Assembly: GCA_947373185.1 (NCBI GenBank)
Contig: CANBWP010000011.1
Location: 1-64,000 of the forward strand
From: Comamonadaceae bacterium
Lineage (GTDB): Bacteria > Pseudomonadota > Gammaproteobacteria > Burkholderiales > Burkholderiaceae_C
DNA: 64,000 nt
Reading direction: 5' to 3'
In this document: positions 43,198 to 63,501 of the stretch, piece after piece
How positions within the stretch are numbered: position 1 is the stretch's first letter
How the letters are laid out: the number at the start of each line of letters is the position of its first letter
Made by a program: the position numbers and the translations under genes
Notes under the pieces: generated by a model
The model's database searches: none
Told to the model about the DNA's origin: nothing
What the model saw: only the letters and a program-made list of their open reading frames with translations

Positions 43198-45003
43198 TCA
43201 TGGTTTGGCCTTGTGGGCCAAATTCAGAGCGTGCGGTGTGTCGTGTGAGTGGTCATGAGGATGGTCGTGGCCATGTGAGTGTCCATGGTCATGCGAGTGC
43301 CCATGCTGATGTGAATGGCCATCGCCATGCGAATGCGCCTTCTTGTGATCGTGACGGTGCATCTTGCCGTCTTCATGGGCATGCCACTCGCCGGGATCGG
43401 ACTTGCCATGGGCACGTGGGTCTTCATTGAAGACCAAAGACTTGACGGTGACCGGCACCGTCCAAGATGGCATGCGAATGCGGCCCAAGTCGACGAAGTC
43501 AAAGCCCCACAAAGTGACACCATCAATCACCAAGACTTCGCACTTCACGCGCTCGTCTTCTTTAAACAGGTGGCCAAGGTTGTGGGCAATGTCGCCATCG
43601 GTCACGATGTACAAATGGCGTTGCTGCTTCAGTGTTTCGGGCAAACCATTCAGGATGCCTTGTGACAATGCATGCAAGCGGCTGAAAGACGGCGCGCCAA
43701 GCCAGCGCAGCGAAATGGCCACATCTTGCGCGCCTTCTACCAAGTCGTGCCGGCGGAAGGACTTGCCCAGCGCCTCTGCAATTTCAACGGGGTCGATGGC
43801 TTCTGTGAGCGTCAGATTCAAGGGAATCACTTGCAGGTTTTTGCGCGGGAGCAGGGCGGCAGGTTCAGAAATGAAGGTGGTGTTGCCACTCAGTTGAACA
43901 CTGTATTCAGAGGCGCCCAGCACGGTCGCTCGGATGCACTCACCGGCAGGCAACAAAGGAACGGGCACAGCGTTCTGGTCCAGACGTTGGCGCACGGCTT
44001 CACCGAACAATTTGCCCAAGTCGCCAAAGTCACGCATTTCACGGCGATACACGTATTCGCCCACACCGCCAGAGAACATGATGCCATCGAGTTGGCCCCA
44101 GTCATCGACGGGGTCTGTCAAATACAGTTGTGCCAAATCTTCGCGTGAGAATTTTTGTGTGAGCACGCGCACCAAGGCGTCGGCCATCCACTGTGCCACT
44201 TTGGCCAAGTCTTGACGCGAGACTTGATCGCCCAGTTTCCAATCGAAGCCGGCTTGGCTGGCCAGGTAGGCGCCTGCAGGGTCGAGCCGTGTGAGCACAT
44301 TTTTTTCATTCACCACCATGAGACGGCCACCCAAATGAACGGCCGCGGTCGCAATCAGTTCACCGTTTTGAACCAAGCCCAGCTTGGTGGTGCCACCGCC
44401 AATGTCGATGTTCAAGATGCGGTGTTTTTCGTCGTACGAGCGCTTGGCAGCACCCGAGCCATAGACCGCCAACATGGCTTCCATGTGGTGACCGGCTGTG
44501 GCACATACAAACTCGCCCCCTTGCTCTGCCAATACAGCGGCAATGGATTCGCTGTTTTCGCGGCGCAGGGCTTCGCCTGTCAAGATGACGGCACCTGCAT
44601 CAATTTCATCGGGATGCAAACCAGACTCTTGGTACGCTTTGTCAATGATGGTGCCAAGGGCTTTGGCATCCATCAAGCTGTCGTTCAGGTAAGGCGTGAG
44701 GGAGATGGGCGATTGATACAGCGCAGTGCGTTCCACCACGGTGTAACGGCTCGACAAATCTTCGGCAATGCGGCGCAAATGGATGCGTGAAAACACCACC
44801 TGTGTGCCAGAGGAGCCCACATCGATGCCGACGCTGTGCAAAATCACATTGTCTTGACGCCACAGTGATTCTTGCGATGGATCGTCCCCCGCAAAGTCAT
44901 GGTCATGGTCATGGTCTGCTTCACCATCGTGCGTGTGATACGTGTCCGCGCCGTATTGGTGGTCCTGGACGCTGTGTTTGTTTTGAATGTCTTCGCTGCT
45001 CAT
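43198..45003 (-). CDS. EutA-like reactivating ATPase with histidine-rich ends
   Basis: A 601-residue actin/Hsp70-fold protein homologous to EutA, the factor that releases damaged cobalamin from ethanolamine ammonia-lyase. The ATPase motifs are VGIDVGSSGTQVVFSR (phosphate 1), NIDIGGGTTKLGL (phosphate 2) and MFSGGVGEY (adenosine), and the C-terminal core ends with VPVTVKSLVFN as in EutA. Added to this are a His/Asp-rich N-terminal ~50 residues (DHDHDHD) and a C-terminal ~60 residues with about twenty histidines, probably metal-binding. No eutBC or other cobalamin enzyme is in the window. It sits between a nickel/cobalt permease and an oxygenase reductase (9-bp gap), in the iclR operon. The target is unknown. 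Confidence 0.85.
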   Translation of the reverse strand: MSSEDIQNKHSVQDHQYGADTYHTHDGEADHDHDHDFAGDDPSQESLWRQDNVILHSVGIDVGSSGTQVVFSRIHLRRIAEDLSSRYTVVERTALYQSPISLTPYLNDSLMDAKALGTIIDKAYQESGLHPDEIDAGAVILTGEALRRENSESIAAVLAEQGGEFVCATAGHHMEAMLAVYGSGAAKRSYDEKHRILNIDIGGGTTKLGLVQNGELIATAAVHLGGRLMVVNEKNVLTRLDPAGAYLASQAGFDWKLGDQVSRQDLAKVAQWMADALVRVLTQKFSREDLAQLYLTDPVDDWGQLDGIMFSGGVGEYVYRREMRDFGDLGKLFGEAVRQRLDQNAVPVPLLPAGECIRATVLGASEYSVQLSGNTTFISEPAALLPRKNLQVIPLNLTLTEAIDPVEIAEALGKSFRRHDLVEGAQDVAISLRWLGAPSFSRLHALSQGILNGLPETLKQQRHLYIVTDGDIAHNLGHLFKEDERVKCEVLVIDGVTLWGFDFVDLGRIRMPSWTVPVTVKSLVFNEDPRAHGKSDPGEWHAHEDGKMHRHDHKKAHSHGDGHSHQHGHSHDHGHSHGHDHPHDHSHDTPHALNLAHKAKP

Positions 45004-57876: not shown

Positions 57877-58002
57877 CCTGCTGGCTGCTGCGCTGAGTTC
57901 TTCGCAGTAGATGTAAAGTCTTTGCAAATTTACGTTGGCGTGACAAGGCCCCGTCTTGCCGCGCTAAGATGGGCCTTGCTCAAACATCGAGGTCTTGACA
58001 CC

Positions 58003-58563
58003 ATGGACGCTTTCCTTTGGATGAAACAGAACAAGTTGCTGCTTGTGATCATGCTCAGTTTGAGCGGGGTCAATGCCTTTGCCCAATTTGGGGGTGGCAT
58101 GGGAGGGATGGGCGGTATGGGTGGCAAAAGATCAGGGGGGTACGAGCGATCAGGCCGAGGTGAAAACCCAAGAAGCCAGAATTCGGAAACCCCCATGCTC
58201 ACGCTGAACAATTCTGATCAACTTTTGACGCGGTTGGGTACCTTGCAGTTTGATTTGAAAATGACGGAAGCGCAATTGCAACCGTGGTTGTTGTTCGAAG
58301 GCAAGGTGAGAACTTACATTGAAGACTTGGAACGCGAAAAAATCAAATCCATTCCTGTTCCAGCCGGCGAGGTGCAAGCAGCAGGCTTTCTGACAGGCAT
58401 GGCCTACCTCAGCAAGATGGTGGATTCTGTGCGCAATCGCTACGCAGATTTAGAAGACATAGAAGCAGCGGCCAAAGGTTTGCACCTCATCTTGACGCCT
58501 GCTCAAAAGATTATTTTTGATGCACGCATTCCGTCTATCTTGGTCAAAGACATTGGCCGCTGA
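58003..58563 (+). CDS. Spy/CpxP-like small periplasmic protein with Gly-Met repeats
   Basis: A 186-residue secreted protein, using the ATG at 58003. The signal peptide ends GVNAFA. A GGGMGGMGGMGG repeat is followed by an Arg/Ser-rich linker and a helical domain. Two LTxxQ-like positions, MTEAQLQPW and LTPAQKI, resemble the Spy/CpxP periplasmic chaperone family. The methionine-glycine repeat may bind metal. It converges with the sensor kinase gene and overlaps its last 61 bp, suggesting a link to that two-component system. Confidence in the family is moderate. Confidence 0.65.
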   Translation: MDAFLWMKQNKLLLVIMLSLSGVNAFAQFGGGMGGMGGMGGKRSGGYERSGRGENPRSQNSETPMLTLNNSDQLLTRLGTLQFDLKMTEAQLQPWLLFEGKVRTYIEDLEREKIKSIPVPAGEVQAAGFLTGMAYLSKMVDSVRNRYADLEDIEAAAKGLHLILTPAQKIIFDARIPSILVKDIGR

Positions 58564-59942
58564 TGGAAGACAATGCGAACGGAAAAACCTTGCGGCATTC
58601 TGCTTTGAAATTCAACTTCGGCGTTGTGCACGGATGCAATTTGTTTGACGATGGACAGTCCCAATCCACAACCACTGCCGTCGATGCCTGCGATGTGATG
58701 GAAACGATCAAAAATAGTGGGCAGCTCAGTGGCTGGAATGCCCATGCCGCTGTCTTCAACTTCTAGGAAAGCGGCGCCATTCAGGATGCCACATTTCACA
58801 GTGACAACGCTGCCCTCTGGCGTGTAACGCAGCGCATTGTCAATTAAGTTGCCAATGGCCTCTTGAAGCATCCAAGACAAACCTGAAACATGGACTTCTG
58901 AGATTTCAAACCCCAAATCAATTTGTTTAGCCAACGCACGGTCGATGAACATAGAGGCCGAGCGTTCAATCACATCGGCAAGTCGAACTTGCTCGAAGCT
59001 GTCAGTCAGTGACATGGCGCTTTCAGTGCGCGCATAGCTGAGCAATTGACTGAGCAGATGTTCAATCCGTGTGGTGGCTTCTTCAATGTTCTCTTTTCGC
59101 GCTGGGTGCTGGCCAAAAATACCTTCAGCCACAGCAAGATCAATTTGAGTTTGCAAGCCTGCAAGGGGTGTGCGAAGCTGATGCGCAGCATCGGCAATGA
59201 AGCGTTGTTGAATGGCATTTGACTCGCGAAGCAGGTGAAACAATTCGTTCAATCGCTTGAGCAGGGGCCTTAGCTCGAAAGGGTTTTGCGCCAGTTCAAG
59301 TTCGCGCAAATCATTGACGGACCTGCTGGCTATTTCTTTTTCCAGTGTGTGAAGTGGCTCGAGGCCCTTGCGAACACCCCAAAGCACAGCCAGAAGAACG
59401 GTGAGCATGACCAGCAAATTGGGAACGACCATGGCCGTCAAAAATTTGTGGCTGGATTGCTCGCGTTTTTGGATGGTCTCAACAACTTGAATCAGCAAAT
59501 CCGAGTCATGAAGTTGGATTTGATGGTGGGCAATTCTGACGGGTTGTTGGCGATAGCTGCCATCGAGGAACGTCACGATGCGATGATCGACTTGCGATTG
59601 GACGGGCAATGCCGCGTCACCGAGCAAAGTCGTGCCGTCCGTATTGCGCACAGAGAAATAAAGTTTGTCAGGCGCATTGCTCAAAATCATCGCTTCAGAT
59701 TCGGCGGCCAAATTGAGATTAGACAGGGAAGGCTGCTTGCGTATGAGTTCTTCTAAGTCGTAAACAACGTCTGCCAATGCCACATCGTGCGCTGAATTGG
59801 CAGTTTGTTTGGCCACCACATAGTCCCAAATGCAGCTGATGCAAAAAATCACCATGAGTGGAATGCTCAGTGAAACGATCAGCCTTTGGTTCAAGCCCCA
59901 AGGTTGGATGTGGGACAACAGCTTCGAAAATTTAAGGCGCAT
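58503..59942 (-). CDS. Sensor histidine kinase, TctE-like
   Basis: A 479-residue membrane sensor. It has a first transmembrane helix (residues ~20-40), a periplasmic region, a second helix near 170-190 (VVPNLLVMLTVLLAVLW), then the kinase core with H-box AAHQLRTPLAGL, an N-box and a glycine-rich ATP-binding G-box near DGSGCGLGLSIV. The N-terminal half resembles TctE-type tricarboxylate sensors. I use the ATG at 59942; the ORF track begins at a TTG upstream. It overlaps the response-regulator gene by 11 bp, so they are coupled. Confidence 0.9.
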   Translation of the reverse strand: MRLKFSKLLSHIQPWGLNQRLIVSLSIPLMVIFCISCIWDYVVAKQTANSAHDVALADVVYDLEELIRKQPSLSNLNLAAESEAMILSNAPDKLYFSVRNTDGTTLLGDAALPVQSQVDHRIVTFLDGSYRQQPVRIAHHQIQLHDSDLLIQVVETIQKREQSSHKFLTAMVVPNLLVMLTVLLAVLWGVRKGLEPLHTLEKEIASRSVNDLRELELAQNPFELRPLLKRLNELFHLLRESNAIQQRFIADAAHQLRTPLAGLQTQIDLAVAEGIFGQHPARKENIEEATTRIEHLLSQLLSYARTESAMSLTDSFEQVRLADVIERSASMFIDRALAKQIDLGFEISEVHVSGLSWMLQEAIGNLIDNALRYTPEGSVVTVKCGILNGAAFLEVEDSGMGIPATELPTIFDRFHHIAGIDGSGCGLGLSIVKQIASVHNAEVEFQSRMPQGFSVRIVFHQRPMSLTKIDGMRASKIIF

Positions 59943-60600
59943 CGACTCTGTATCCAATCCCGCGAATGGTTCGGATGCTCACAGCGGCGTGCGCCAGTTT
60001 GCTGCGCAGCCTCGAAATATGAACTTCAATGGCATTGGGGGTGATGTCCTTGTCCCACCCCGCAACGCTTTGCAGCAAGCGGTCTTTGCTGACCACAGAT
60101 GGCGATGCCATGAGCAATATTTCCAAAAGGCCCCACTCACGTTTTGTCAGGTCCAGTTGGATGTTTTCTTTGTAGGTGGCGGTGCGAGTGAGGGTGTCAA
60201 GTTTGAGCTCTCCGTGGCGAATGCAGGCATCCGCCTTGTCGTGCGAGCGCCTGAGCAAAGCCCGAATTCGTGCGCCCAATTCAGGCAAGCGAAATGGTTT
60301 TGTCATGTAGTCATCTGCGCCAGCATCTAAGCCAAGCACGGTGTCTTCCATGGTGCCCCGAGCCGTCAGCATGAGCACTGGAAGGGTGTTGCCCATCGCT
60401 CGGAGTTGGGCAACAAATGAAAGGCCGCTTGCTTTTGGCAAGCCAATGTCGACAACCGCAATGTCAAACATTTCAGAGTTCATGATGATGCTGGCCTCTT
60501 CCGCTGACCTGGCCAGATCGACGGTGTACTGCAATTGCTGCAGTCCCTGTTTCAGGCCTTTGGCAACGAGGTCATCGTCTTCCACAATGAGTACGCGCAT
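59932..60600 (-). CDS. OmpR-family response regulator
   Basis: A 222-residue regulator with an N-terminal receiver (phosphoacceptor Asp51 in VVDIGLP, Lys in MTKPF) and a C-terminal OmpR-type winged helix. It resembles TctD/QseB-type regulators. It lies 12 bp after the tetrahaem cytochrome gene, so cytochrome, regulator and kinase form one operon; the system may sense the redox or carboxylate state that this respiratory cluster serves. Confidence 0.93.
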   Translation of the reverse strand: MRVLIVEDDDLVAKGLKQGLQQLQYTVDLARSAEEASIIMNSEMFDIAVVDIGLPKASGLSFVAQLRAMGNTLPVLMLTARGTMEDTVLGLDAGADDYMTKPFRLPELGARIRALLRRSHDKADACIRHGELKLDTLTRTATYKENIQLDLTKREWGLLEILLMASPSVVSKDRLLQSVAGWDKDITPNAIEVHISRLRSKLAHAAVSIRTIRGIGYRVDAP

Positions 60601-60612
60601 GGTGTCCTTGGG

Positions 60613-61194
60613 TCAAAGTTGTCTATGTGAGTCGACGCGGAGTTCATCTGGCGAATGCCCGCCCGCAGGCTCTTTGTGTGCGATGCCATAGTGACAATCG
60701 ATGCACGTTTTTTCGCCTGAGCGTAATTTTTGATGCTGTTTCTGTGCGGTCTTGCCCTGTTGTTCGGGATCCATCGTCGCGACGTCGTGACAATTTCTGC
60801 ACTCTTGCGAGTCTGTCGCTTTCATGTGTTGCCAAACACGTTGCGCCAATTCAAGCCGATGGGCTTCAAACTTGGCGGGTGTATCAATGGCACCTGTGAA
60901 GTGTTTGTAGAGGTCGTTGGACGCTTCAATTTTGCGAATGAGGGTGCCAACAAAATCATGGGGGACGTGGCAATCAGAACAAATGGCCTTGACGCCCGTC
61001 CTGTTTTTGGCATGAATGGTGTCTTTGTACTCCTTGTAATTGTTGTCCTTCATCTCATGACAGGAAATGCAGAAGCTCAAGGTGTTGGTGCGATCAAGCA
61101 CATTTTTTCCTGCCAGCAGGAGCGCTGCCCCCAATGCAATGAAGCACATTGCAAAGTAGAAAATTCTTTTCGCGGTACTGGCGTTTCGGCGCAT
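60613..61194 (-). CDS. NapC/NirT-type tetrahaem cytochrome c
   Basis: A 193-residue membrane-anchored cytochrome. An N-terminal transmembrane helix (about residues 11-30) is followed by four haem-binding CxxCH motifs (CISCH, CSDCH, CRNCH, CIDCH). This is the quinol-dehydrogenase NapC/NirT/CymA layout: it takes electrons from the quinol pool to periplasmic acceptors, or works in reverse. No nap, nir or other reductase gene lies next to it. It is divergent from the cytochrome-porin gene, with a 16-bp inverted repeat between them. Confidence 0.92.
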   Translation of the reverse strand: MRRNASTAKRIFYFAMCFIALGAALLLAGKNVLDRTNTLSFCISCHEMKDNNYKEYKDTIHAKNRTGVKAICSDCHVPHDFVGTLIRKIEASNDLYKHFTGAIDTPAKFEAHRLELAQRVWQHMKATDSQECRNCHDVATMDPEQQGKTAQKQHQKLRSGEKTCIDCHYGIAHKEPAGGHSPDELRVDSHRQL

Positions 61195-61239
61195 TCAATG
61201 ACTTTCAGTGATCAGATCGAAGATCTTTGAACACAGAGG

Positions 61240-61286
61240 CTTGCGAACACCTGACTAAAAACAAAGTTTCGTCAGGTGTTCGCAAG
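61240..61286. repeat. Perfect 16-bp inverted repeat between divergent cytochrome genes
   Basis: CTTGCGAACACCTGAC and its exact reverse complement flank a 15-base AT-rich centre that includes AAAC-AAA-GTTT, so the hairpin can extend further. There is no adjacent T-run. It lies in the 142-bp gap between the napC-like and porin-cytochrome genes, about 50 bp from each start. Confidence 0.75.
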
Positions 61287-61336
61287 TTAGTTCAATTGAG
61301 AATCACGGCACATTCACTCTTACCGTCTCTCTACGT

Positions 61337-62716
61337 ATGTTGCCCATTCTTTCACTCAGAGTCGCTGCGCGCCTCGTCCATGCCCATCGTGCGATGTGCA
61401 AGTCTTTTGCAGCAGGGATCATCTTGTTTTTCATGGCCACAATGGCCCATGCTGTGCCCAGCTACGCGCGTCAAACAGGCGCTGAATGCGCTGCGTGTCA
61501 TGTGGGCAGCTACGGGCCTCAGCTCACCCCATTTGGTGTGCGTTTCAAAATTGGTGGCTATGTGGACAGCGACGGTCAATCCGGCAAAACACCTTTGTCA
61601 GGCATGTTGGTGGTCAACACCACGCGCACAGCCAAGGATGCAAGTGAAGGCGATACGCTGGAAAATTTCAAACCCAACAACAATACAGCCGCGCAAGAAG
61701 GCTCTGTCTTTCTGGCAGGTCGATTGATGGACAACGTGGGCTCATTTGTCCAGGCGACTTACTCTGGCATTGAGCGCAAGTGGGGCCTTGACCAACTGGA
61801 CGTTCGGTATGCACGCAACTTCAGCTTGGCCGGTAAAGATACAACGGCGGGCATTTCTCTGAACAACAACCCAACCTTGACAGATCCATTTCACACCATT
61901 GGACAGTGGCGGTTCCCATACACGGCCTCAGATTTCAATGCGGGCTTTGGTCCTGCACCGCTCATGGAAAGTTTAGGGGGGGCGGTTTGGGGAACCAATG
62001 CCTACGCTTTGTTGGACGATCATTTTTATGGTGAATTTGGCTTGTACAGCAACCAGTCCGCCAAAGCCCTGAAAACATTCAATGGCAGTGACATGGGCGT
62101 TTTCAAAGGCCTTGGCAACTATGGCCGTCTGGCGTACTTTCAAGACAACAAGCGTGACAATTATTCTGTCGGTGTATTTGGCTTTGGTGCCAGTGTGCAA
62201 CCTGATCGTACGCAGCTGGGTGCTTCGGACAAGTACCGCGATTACGGCATCGATGCGGCCTATCAATTTCTTGGCAATCGCAAGCACATTGTGGCAGTCA
62301 ACGCCAGCTACACCTTGGAAAAGCAGCAGTTGAATTTCACGCATGGCGTGATCGACGAGGCGGATCAACTGAAAAATTCGTTGAAGCAATTCAAGCTCTC
62401 CACATCCTACAACTACAACAACACATGGGGTGCCACAGTGGGGCTGTTTGATACCCGTGGCTCAAGTGACGCGACCAAATACGCATCGGCTTTGAATGGC
62501 AGCCCCACCACACAAGGCTATGTGTTGCAGGCCGACTGGACGCCCTGGGGCAAAGACGGCTCTTGGGCCGCACCTCTTGCCAACATTCGCTTAGGTTTCC
62601 AATACACGGGCTATCGCAAATTCATGGGCGGCACAGCTTACTTGGATGGCAGCGGCAATACCCGACAAGCCAAAGACAACAACACCAGCATGCTGTTCTT
62701 GTGGACCGCCATCTAA
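61337..62716 (+). CDS. Cyc2-like fused monohaem cytochrome / outer-membrane barrel
   Basis: A 459-residue outer-membrane protein. The signal peptide (ending MAHA) is followed by PSYARQTGAECAACH and LTPFGVRFKIGGY, the arrangement of Cyc2-type fused cytochrome-porins: one haem CxxCH at the mature N-terminus and a C-terminal barrel of alternating strands. Cyc2 moves electrons across the outer membrane in iron-oxidising bacteria; related proteins occur in others, so the electron donor here is open. Two starts are possible: ATG 61337 (long leader) and ATG 61394 (MCKSFAAG, a normal-length leader). Neither has a clear ribosome-binding site. Confidence 0.8.
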   Translation: MLPILSLRVAARLVHAHRAMCKSFAAGIILFFMATMAHAVPSYARQTGAECAACHVGSYGPQLTPFGVRFKIGGYVDSDGQSGKTPLSGMLVVNTTRTAKDASEGDTLENFKPNNNTAAQEGSVFLAGRLMDNVGSFVQATYSGIERKWGLDQLDVRYARNFSLAGKDTTAGISLNNNPTLTDPFHTIGQWRFPYTASDFNAGFGPAPLMESLGGAVWGTNAYALLDDHFYGEFGLYSNQSAKALKTFNGSDMGVFKGLGNYGRLAYFQDNKRDNYSVGVFGFGASVQPDRTQLGASDKYRDYGIDAAYQFLGNRKHIVAVNASYTLEKQQLNFTHGVIDEADQLKNSLKQFKLSTSYNYNNTWGATVGLFDTRGSSDATKYASALNGSPTTQGYVLQADWTPWGKDGSWAAPLANIRLGFQYTGYRKFMGGTAYLDGSGNTRQAKDNNTSMLFLWTAI

Positions 62717-62730
62717 ACGGAATTTGAAAA

Positions 62731-63105
62731 ATGAAATCAAAGAAATATGCAGGCGCATTGATGCTCGCAATGTTGTGCGTCCCCCTGGCATGGGCTCAAG
62801 GCAGCGCCAAAAAGGGGGCGGACACCTTTGCCGAAGAATGTGGCGACTGCCACAGCGCGCAGGGCAAAAATAAAAAAGGCCCCAGCCTGATTGGGGTGCT
62901 TGGCCGCAAAGCTGGAACGGTGGCTGACTATGCGGCTTACTCAGATGCCATGAAGGACAGCGGCATTGTGTGGTCATCTGAGAAACTCGATGCCTACATC
63001 ACACAACCCAAAAAGCTGGTCAGTGGTGGCAAGATGAAGTACGACGGTTTGCCAGAGGCAAAGGCGCGCGCAGATGTCATCGCCTTTGTCTTGTCGATGA
63101 AGTGA
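62731..63105 (+). CDS. Class I cytochrome c (c2-like), periplasmic
   Basis: A 124-residue soluble cytochrome with signal peptide ending AWAQ. The haem motif is CGDCH, with the fold-typical GPSLIGVLGRKAGT and the axial methionine in GGKMKY, as in mitochondrial-like c and c2 cytochromes. It starts 14 bp after the porin-cytochrome stop, so it is probably its periplasmic electron partner, linking it to the inner-membrane chain or the tetrahaem cytochrome. Confidence 0.92.
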   Translation: MKSKKYAGALMLAMLCVPLAWAQGSAKKGADTFAEECGDCHSAQGKNKKGPSLIGVLGRKAGTVADYAAYSDAMKDSGIVWSSEKLDAYITQPKKLVSGGKMKYDGLPEAKARADVIAFVLSMK

Positions 63106-63116
63106 GTGCTGCGCCT

Positions 63117-63479
63117 TCAGCGCATGGCATTTTTCAACAGTGAAATTTGAGAGGCTGCAGGACTCTGCGGCATGCTCTCCACAAACGCGTACAAGTCTTT
63201 CAATTGCGCATCGCTGATCACCTGAACCGGATAGCGCGGCATCAGGCTGCGCGGTGTGCGCAGTTGCAACTCAAACGCGACAAACGGCGTTGGGTTGGGG
63301 AAAATCTTCGGTCCTGCACTCCGCTCGCCACCTTGGCCGTTGGTGCCATGGCAGCTGTCGCATTGGTTTTGCATAAAAAGTGCCTCGCCGCGTTGGGCGG
63401 CTTCAAGGTCGGCCGCTTGCACAGCCGGACTGATGGCAACACTGCTCAAAATGAAGAAGTTTGTAATCAGATGTTTCAT
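63117..63479 (-). CDS. Monohaem c-type cytochrome
   Basis: A 120-residue periplasmic cytochrome with signal peptide ending VQAA and haem motif CDSCHG; the tail segment with MPRYP may supply the methionine ligand. I use the ATG at 63479 (MKHLIT); the ORF track begins seven codons earlier. It is convergent with the preceding cytochrome, 11 bp apart, and downstream of the porin terminator. Confidence 0.88.
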   Translation of the reverse strand: MKHLITNFFILSSVAISPAVQAADLEAAQRGEALFMQNQCDSCHGTNGQGGERSAGPKIFPNPTPFVAFELQLRTPRSLMPRYPVQVISDAQLKDLYAFVESMPQSPAASQISLLKNAMR

Positions 63480-63501
63480 GTCAGTTGTCCGATGAAGCAT
63501 G

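What the first reader, a model, noticed from the sequence alone, without database searches (positions are those of the whole stretch)
60613..63105. Cyc2-like fused cytochrome-porin beside a NapC/CymA-type cytochrome
One inner-membrane tetrahaem quinol dehydrogenase, one periplasmic cytochrome c and one outer-membrane cytochrome-barrel form a full chain across the envelope. PSYARQTG-x4-CH-(then)-LTPFG is the pattern I associate with Cyc2 of iron oxidisers. With no nap, nir or other reductase next to it, extracellular electron uptake (Fe(II), Mn(II) or a cathode) or release is plausible.
Basis: partly seen in the sequence, partly recalled or inferred. Interest (0 to 1): 0.75.

Follow-up and report, generated by a model that had tools for sequence, protein, structure and literature searches.

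The report
Cyc2-type outer-membrane cytochrome with tetrahaem partner
A bacterium that lacks the main carbon-fixing enzyme carries an outer-membrane cytochrome-barrel of the iron-oxidase family Cyc2 next to a small cytochrome and a membrane tetrahaem cytochrome, which together look like a wire between the cell's quinones and the outside world; the parts are of known kinds, but this pairing, and its swapping with another membrane cytochrome in relatives, has not been described in the papers I could search.

Summary
Window 61394-62716 (+) encodes a 440-aa fused cytochrome-porin. It has one CXXCH inside the Cyc2 motif (AVPSYARQT-CAACH-PQL) and a confident AlphaFold model of a 16-strand barrel with an N-terminal haem domain (pLDDT 87). 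It lies in a branch of the Cyc2 superfamily separate from the Gallionellaceae (Cluster 1) Cyc2. Published links suggest Cluster 2, which I could not test. The neighbours are a class I cytochrome c (62731-63105, +), a divergent NapC/NirT tetrahaem (60613-61194, -) and a two-component system. In its 13-member subclade the cytochrome c is kept in 12. A quinol module lies beside it in 8 of 13, either NapC (3) or cytochrome b561 (5), never both, against 3 of 41 in the rest of the group. One relative from another family has all five genes colinear. Elsewhere the same genome carries an Mto/Mtr cluster (decahaem, MtrB/PioB, NapC) and no RuBisCO. Only 1 of 90 genomes of the genus has the gene. Best reading: an electron conduit linking the quinol pool to the surface, more likely oxidising Fe(II). 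Direction is open: the c cytochrome looks high-potential, so electrons into NapC would run uphill. New variant of a known kind.

The parts
58503..59957 (-). sensor histidine kinase, QseC-like (2CSK_N, HisKA, HATPase); start uncertain
   Evidence: PF08521 1.7e-25, PF02518 1.2e-20; QseC NCBIfam E 2e-54, below cut-off; homologue beside Cyc2-like gene in L031, L032, L034, L129, L138
59932..60600 (-). OmpR-type response regulator, overlaps the kinase gene
   Evidence: PF00072 1.6e-26, PF00486 5.8e-20
60613..61194 (-). NapC/NirT-type membrane-anchored tetrahaem cytochrome c; haem I motif CISCHEM
   Evidence: PF03264 2.7e-66; CXXCH at residues 42, 72, 132, 164; 64-66% identical to NapC of L033 and L138, 52% to the genome's Mto-cluster NapC
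61240..61286 (.). inverted repeat, 20-nt arms, 7-nt loop, in the 142-nt divergent intergenic region; possible operator or hairpin
   Evidence: no other close copy in the window
61394..62716 (+). Cyc2-family fused monohaem cytochrome / 16-strand porin (alternative start 61337)
62731..63105 (+). periplasmic class I cytochrome c (c550/c2 type), probable His-Met haem (GGKMKYDG)
   Evidence: PF00034 1.2e-6; NF043008 c550 CycA 1.4e-20, below cut-off; PDB matches to cytochrome cy, c2 and mitochondrial c at 1e-24 to 1e-18; kept beside the Cyc2-like gene in 12 of 13 clade members
63117..63500 (-). second class I cytochrome c, opposite strand; membership of the system uncertain
   Evidence: PF13442 4.6e-9; no homologue seen beside relatives except a weak one in L129

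Best explanation
A two-component-regulated extracellular electron conduit. Shown: a Cyc2-family cytochrome-porin, a small class I cytochrome c and a NapC-type tetrahaem are neighbours here, and are kept together or swapped like for like in relatives. Inferred: the Cyc2-like haem sits at the periplasmic mouth of the barrel; it exchanges electrons with an outside substrate (most likely dissolved Fe(II), as in the three Cyc2 proteins tested) and with the periplasmic cytochrome c. That cytochrome passes electrons downhill to a haem-copper oxidase, while NapC (cytochrome b561 in sister lineages) connects the same cytochrome pool to ubiquinol. In this genome, which has no RuBisCO, it would support lithoheterotrophic rather than autotrophic growth.
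For: Cyc2 motif and spacing; profile match to Gallionellaceae Cyc2, 99.7% over 284 columns, running into the barrel; 16 strands in both models; porin folds by Foldseek. Module conservation in the 13-member clade: cytochrome c 12/13, quinol module 8/13 against 3/41 in the other members of the group (Fisher p 1.5e-4), NapC and b561 mutually exclusive. L138, from another family, has RR-HK-NapC-cytochrome c-Cyc2-like on one strand with overlapping ends. The genome has two COX1-family genes and no RuBisCO. It also carries an MtoA/DmsE decahaem-MtrB/PioB-NapC cluster; Sideroxydans ES-1 likewise has both Cyc2 and Mto. All three biochemically tested Cyc2 oxidise Fe(II) (PMC8406198).
Against: Not in the Cluster 1 group where iron oxidation is best supported; Keffer et al. 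warn that function is uncertain far from tested members (PMC8406198). A high-potential c550-like carrier cannot easily reduce a NapC-type protein (PMC13390432: MtoD at +155 mV does not interact with ImoA). NapC and b561 normally oxidise quinol, which would send electrons outward. NapC is divergently transcribed here. The gene is in only 1 of 90 genomes of the genus and no phenotype is known.
Confidence: 0.5

Rival explanations
1. The same conduit runs outward: ubiquinol to NapC (or b561) to cytochrome c to the Cyc2-like protein to a high-potential outside acceptor such as Fe(III) chelates or Mn(IV), as an electron outlet in low oxygen.
For: NapC/NirT and b561 proteins are typically quinol oxidisers, and both occur in this slot; the step from NapC to a c550-type cytochrome is downhill (for the c type; PMC13390432 for potentials).
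Against: Every tested Cyc2 is an Fe(II) oxidase and no Cyc2 is known to export electrons; a single haem near +200 mV (PV-1 value, PMC8406198) is a poor donor to most minerals.
Confidence: 0.27
2. The Cyc2-like protein with its cytochrome c is an iron (or other metal) oxidase feeding an oxidase only; NapC and the two-component genes are a separate unit that happens to be adjacent.
For: NapC is divergent from the other genes here; 5 of 13 clade members have no quinol module within 4 kb; L129, L285, L286 and L288 keep only the cytochrome c.
Against: NapC or b561 is enriched in the clade (p 1.5e-4) and is colinear with the rest in L138 and L033.
Confidence: 0.15
3. Not an energy pathway: the protein senses or detoxifies an extracellular metal or oxidant and, with the QseBC/PmrAB-like two-component system, works in envelope stress.
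For: A kinase-regulator pair of a metal/envelope-stress type beside 6 of 13; a Cyc2 role as Fe(II) sensor has been suggested (PMC12442390).
Against: The cytochrome c and quinol modules are kept more often than the two-component pair, which fits electron transfer.
Confidence: 0.08

Closest known systems
Cyc2 fused cytochrome-porin (Mariprofundus PV-1, Acidithiobacillus ferrooxidans, Gallionellaceae; PMC8406198, PMC7029218)
   Same: Single haem, AXPXFAR[QK][TY]...CXXCH...PXL motif, more than 365 aa, 16-strand porin
   Different: F to Y in the motif, one extra residue before PXL, 'LTPFG' for 'LNxFG'; separate branch from Cluster 1; paired with class I cytochrome c and NapC
Cyc2-Cyc1 (dihaem c4) gene pair of Acidithiobacillus and many proteobacteria (PMC10654088)
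   Same: The wider group around this protein pairs with a dihaem class I cytochrome in 28 of 41 sampled members
   Different: This clade has a monohaem c550-like cytochrome instead (12/13) and never the dihaem (0/13)
Mto pathway of Sideroxydans lithotrophicus ES-1: MtoAB, monohaem MtoD/PmcA, NapC-type ImoA (PMC13390432)
   Same: Architecture: outer-membrane conduit, small monohaem, NapC/NirT tetrahaem. A full Mto-like cluster is present elsewhere in this genome
   Different: The conduit here is a one-haem Cyc2-type barrel, not MtoAB; the NapC is only 52% identical to the genome's Mto-cluster NapC
ircABCD cluster (b-type cytochrome, mono- and dihaem c) of iron oxidisers (PMC12442390)
   Same: A membrane b-type cytochrome plus small c cytochromes tied to iron oxidation, like the b561-cytochrome c neighbours of the sister genes
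   Different: No fused porin in irc; not compared by sequence here

Membership tests
Cyc2 superfamily (Keffer et al. 2021 criteria) | AXPXFAR[Q/K][T/Y] shortly before CXXCH, PXL shortly after | tested here: met
   AVPSYARQTGAECAACHVGSYGPQL: Y for F, spacing to CXXCH identical to Gallionellaceae Cyc2, PXL one residue further
Cyc2 superfamily (Keffer et al. 2021 criteria) | one haem, at least 365 aa | tested here: met
   440 aa, one CXXCH
Cyc2 superfamily (Keffer et al. 2021 criteria) | 16-strand porin fused to N-terminal cytochrome | tested here: met
   16 strands, pLDDT 86.9; same strand count in a Gallionella Cyc2 model, pLDDT 72; Foldseek porins including OprP
Cyc2 superfamily (Keffer et al. 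2021 criteria) | sequence homology to accepted Cyc2 | tested here: met
   hhalign 99.7%, E 2.4e-25 to an alignment whose members match named Gallionella and Sideroxydans genomes
Cyc2 Cluster 1 (neutrophilic iron oxidisers) | falls with Gallionellaceae/Zetaproteobacteria sequences | tested here: not met
   separated by a branch with SH-aLRT 100, length 1.08; forced grouping AU p 0.042
Cyc2 Cluster 2 or 3 | falls with A. ferrooxidans Cyc2 or Leptospirillum Cyt572; FeGenie HMM | not testable with these tools
   no reference sequence or HMM at hand; literature links Burkholderiales/Sphaerotilaceae homologues to Cluster 2 (PMC10654088, PMC13386937)
Cyc2 superfamily (function) | Fe(II) oxidation, haem potential near +200 mV | not testable with these tools
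   needs protein
NapC/NirT quinol dehydrogenase family | N-terminal membrane anchor, four CXXCH, PF03264 | tested here: met
   E 2.7e-66, four CXXCH; the anchor is read from the N-terminal hydrophobic stretch, no membrane predictor was run
NapC equivalog / TorC | NCBIfam curated cut-offs | tested here: not met
   205.9 bits against 349; 209.5 against 478
Mto/Mtr pathway | MtoA decahaem and MtrB/PioB barrel in the same locus | tested here: not met
   absent from the contig neighbourhood; present on contig C1

The most novel reading that the evidence does not exclude
A distinct Cyc2 lineage wired to the quinol pool through an exchangeable inner-membrane module (NapC or b561), able to pass electrons both ways across the envelope, including outward, in heterotrophs outside the known iron oxidisers.
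Probability: 0.3. Interest if true: 0.75.

Novelty: new variant of a known kind. Interest (0 to 1): 0.52.

Why it matters
How Cyc2 hands electrons on inside the cell is unresolved in neutrophiles, and Cyc2 function outside Cluster 1 is uncertain. Here candidate periplasmic and inner-membrane partners are encoded beside the gene, with a natural swap (NapC or b561) and a regulator, so partner, direction and substrate can be tested. It also flags a Burkholderiales genome without RuBisCO that holds two unrelated outer-membrane conduits.

Tried and rejected
(1) Chance CXXCH plus unrelated porin: rejected by full-length homologues, tree and model. (2) Canonical Cluster 1 Cyc2: rejected by tree and AU test. 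(3) Solved structure of a Cyc2 or close relative: none by sequence. (4) NapC as part of a nap/nir/tor operon: no such genes nearby; below NapC/TorC cut-offs. (5) Placing A. ferrooxidans Cyc2 by its rus operon in a class-wide sample: none found. (6) Co-occurrence with Mto: MtrB/PioB in 3 of 13 genomes of the clade and 4 of 22 comparison genomes, no association. (7) Recent transfer by base composition: the gene is 52.9% G+C, window 54.3% (sd 2.0% over 1.5-kb windows), no signal. (8) AU test of a single origin of NapC in the clade did not finish. (9) Paper search for a Cyc2-NapC pairing as a gene cluster: none found, open-licence papers only.

Full report
1. What is there. The window's right end holds, from left to right, a sensor kinase (58503-59957, -), a response regulator (59932-60600, -), a NapC/NirT-type tetrahaem cytochrome (60613-61194, -), a 142-nt divergent intergenic region with a 20-nt inverted repeat (61240-61286), the Cyc2-like gene (61394-62716, +; longer start at 61337) and a class I cytochrome c (62731-63105, +). 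A second class I cytochrome c lies opposite (63117-63500, -). The gene call at 61394 gives a clean signal peptide ending MAHA|VP (read from the sequence; no signal-peptide tool was run).

2. The Cyc2-like protein. Pfam and NCBIfam have no family for it, nor has Pfam one for authentic Gallionellaceae Cyc2. The published definition of Cyc2 is AXPXFAR[Q/K][T/Y] before a single CXXCH, PXL after it, more than 365 aa and a 16-strand porin (PMC8406198). The window protein reads AVPSYARQT-GAE-CAACH-VGSYG-PQL. Gallionellaceae sequences read e.g. ALPAFARQT-GMA-CTACH-AQHF-PVL. AlphaFold2 on 36 homologues gave pLDDT 86.9 and pTM 0.86, with 16 long strands after a short helical haem domain. Foldseek's best hits are outer-membrane porins, OprP among them. 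A Gallionella Cyc2 model made the same way also has 16 strands with the same long gap between strands 5 and 6, at lower confidence (pLDDT 72). Profile-profile comparison of the two groups gives 99.7% probability over 284 columns, including a shared barrel motif (S[VL]F..GR..[DE]NIG). The Gallionellaceae identity was checked: the query protein is 100% identical to Gallionella sp. C10_concoct.bin.22, and other loci correspond to Sideroxydans lithotrophicus FI88_60_347.

3. Where it falls. A tree of 94 Cyc2-type proteins (quick IQ-TREE) puts the window protein in a 13-row clade (SH-aLRT 98) inside a 64-row group. A well-supported long branch (100; 1.08) separates that group from the Gallionellaceae/Deltaproteobacteria/Nitrospirae group. 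Forcing the clade into that group is marginally rejected (AU p 0.042). The larger group is widely spread in Burkholderiales and includes named Caballeronia, Paraburkholderia, Ideonella, Methylocystis, Acidiphilium and Polymorphobacter plasmid genes. Most sampled members (28 of 41 outside this clade and its sisters) have a dihaem class I cytochrome next door, which resembles the cyc2-cyc1 (c4) order of Acidithiobacillus described in PMC10654088. That paper links A. ferrooxidans Cyc2 to Burkholderiales homologues, and PMC13386937 assigns Sphaerotilaceae homologues to Cluster 2. Cluster 2 is therefore my inference, not a test.

4. The module. In the 13-row clade the small cytochrome c is beside the gene in 12, the dihaem in none. 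An inner-membrane quinol module is beside it in 8: NapC in 3 (window, L033, L138) and cytochrome b561 (PF01292) in 5 (L031, L032, L034, L122, L281), never both. In the other 41 rows of the larger group, leaving out 10 near sisters, it is 3 of 41 (Fisher p 1.5e-4). Related rows are not independent, so the p value is a guide only. Kinase and regulator are present in 6 of 13 against 3 of 41. On the tree the NapC/b561 states need at least 2 changes, so one replaced the other more than once. In L138, a genome of another family, RR, HK, NapC, cytochrome c and Cyc2-like gene lie in one direction, RR/HK and cytochrome/Cyc2-like ends overlapping. This is the strongest evidence that the window's genes, though divergent, belong together.

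5. Direction. The small cytochrome resembles c550/c2/mitochondrial cytochrome c and has a GGKMKYDG segment where Met is the usual sixth ligand, so it is probably high-potential (inference). In Sideroxydans ES-1 the high-potential MtoD (+155 mV) does not interact with the NapC-type ImoA (0 to -400 mV), while PmcA (-143 mV) does (PMC13390432). By analogy, Fe(II) to Cyc2-like to cytochrome c to oxidase is downhill, NapC to cytochrome c is downhill, and cytochrome c to NapC is uphill. Family precedent (three Fe(II) oxidases) favours uptake; the quinol modules fit release as well.

6. The organism. The genome (2.8 Mb, 99.9% complete) has no RuBisCO, two COX1-family genes, one further NapC and one MtrB/PioB. 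The second NapC lies in a cluster with a class I cytochrome c, a decahaem (TIGR03508, 5e-87) and an MtrB/PioB barrel (TIGR03509, 2e-123), next to ccmE and a CcmF/NrfE-type haem lyase gene: an Mto/Mtr-type conduit. The Cyc2-like gene is in 1 of 90 genomes of the genus, so it is accessory. The genus was not named by any tool; homology to Comamonadaceae-like genes is an impression, not a result.

7. Limits.

Noticed in passing
G000 contig C1, about 185758-190181 (L309:3759-8182): A complete Mto/Mtr-type cluster in the same genome: class I cytochrome c, DmsE/MtoA decahaem, MtrB/PioB barrel and NapC, followed by cytochrome c maturation genes.
   Followed up: yes
L138:5502-10042 (genome G294): All five genes (regulator, kinase, NapC, cytochrome c, Cyc2-like) colinear with overlapping ends in a genome of another family.
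   Followed up: yes
L040:7471-9938 (genome G200): A more distant Cyc2-like gene follows a cytochrome c and a NapC that resemble those of the window genome's Mto cluster (57% and 62%), as if an Mto periplasmic module had been joined to a Cyc2-type barrel.
   Followed up: partly
61240-61286: 20-nt inverted repeat (95% complementary, 7-nt loop) between the divergent genes; no other close copy in the window.
   Followed up: partly
L112:5322-6986 (genome G266): Distant Cyc2-like protein (SYSRRYGVDCHTCH) with a dihaem cytochrome and a NapC next door, on a long branch; an independent NapC pairing.
   Followed up: no
57922-58563: Small secreted-looking protein with a Gly/Met-rich N-terminus and a weak LTXXQ (Spy/CpxP-type) match (E 0.036), convergent with the kinase gene.
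   Followed up: no
43198-45003 and contig position 66502-68040 (L051:8503-10041): The second ORF is an EutA-type protein (PF06277, E 6e-119); the first looks EutA-like by eye, with His-rich ends, and lies beside what look by eye like a CobW GTPase, a NikR regulator and a nickel permease; the first was not tested.
   Followed up: no
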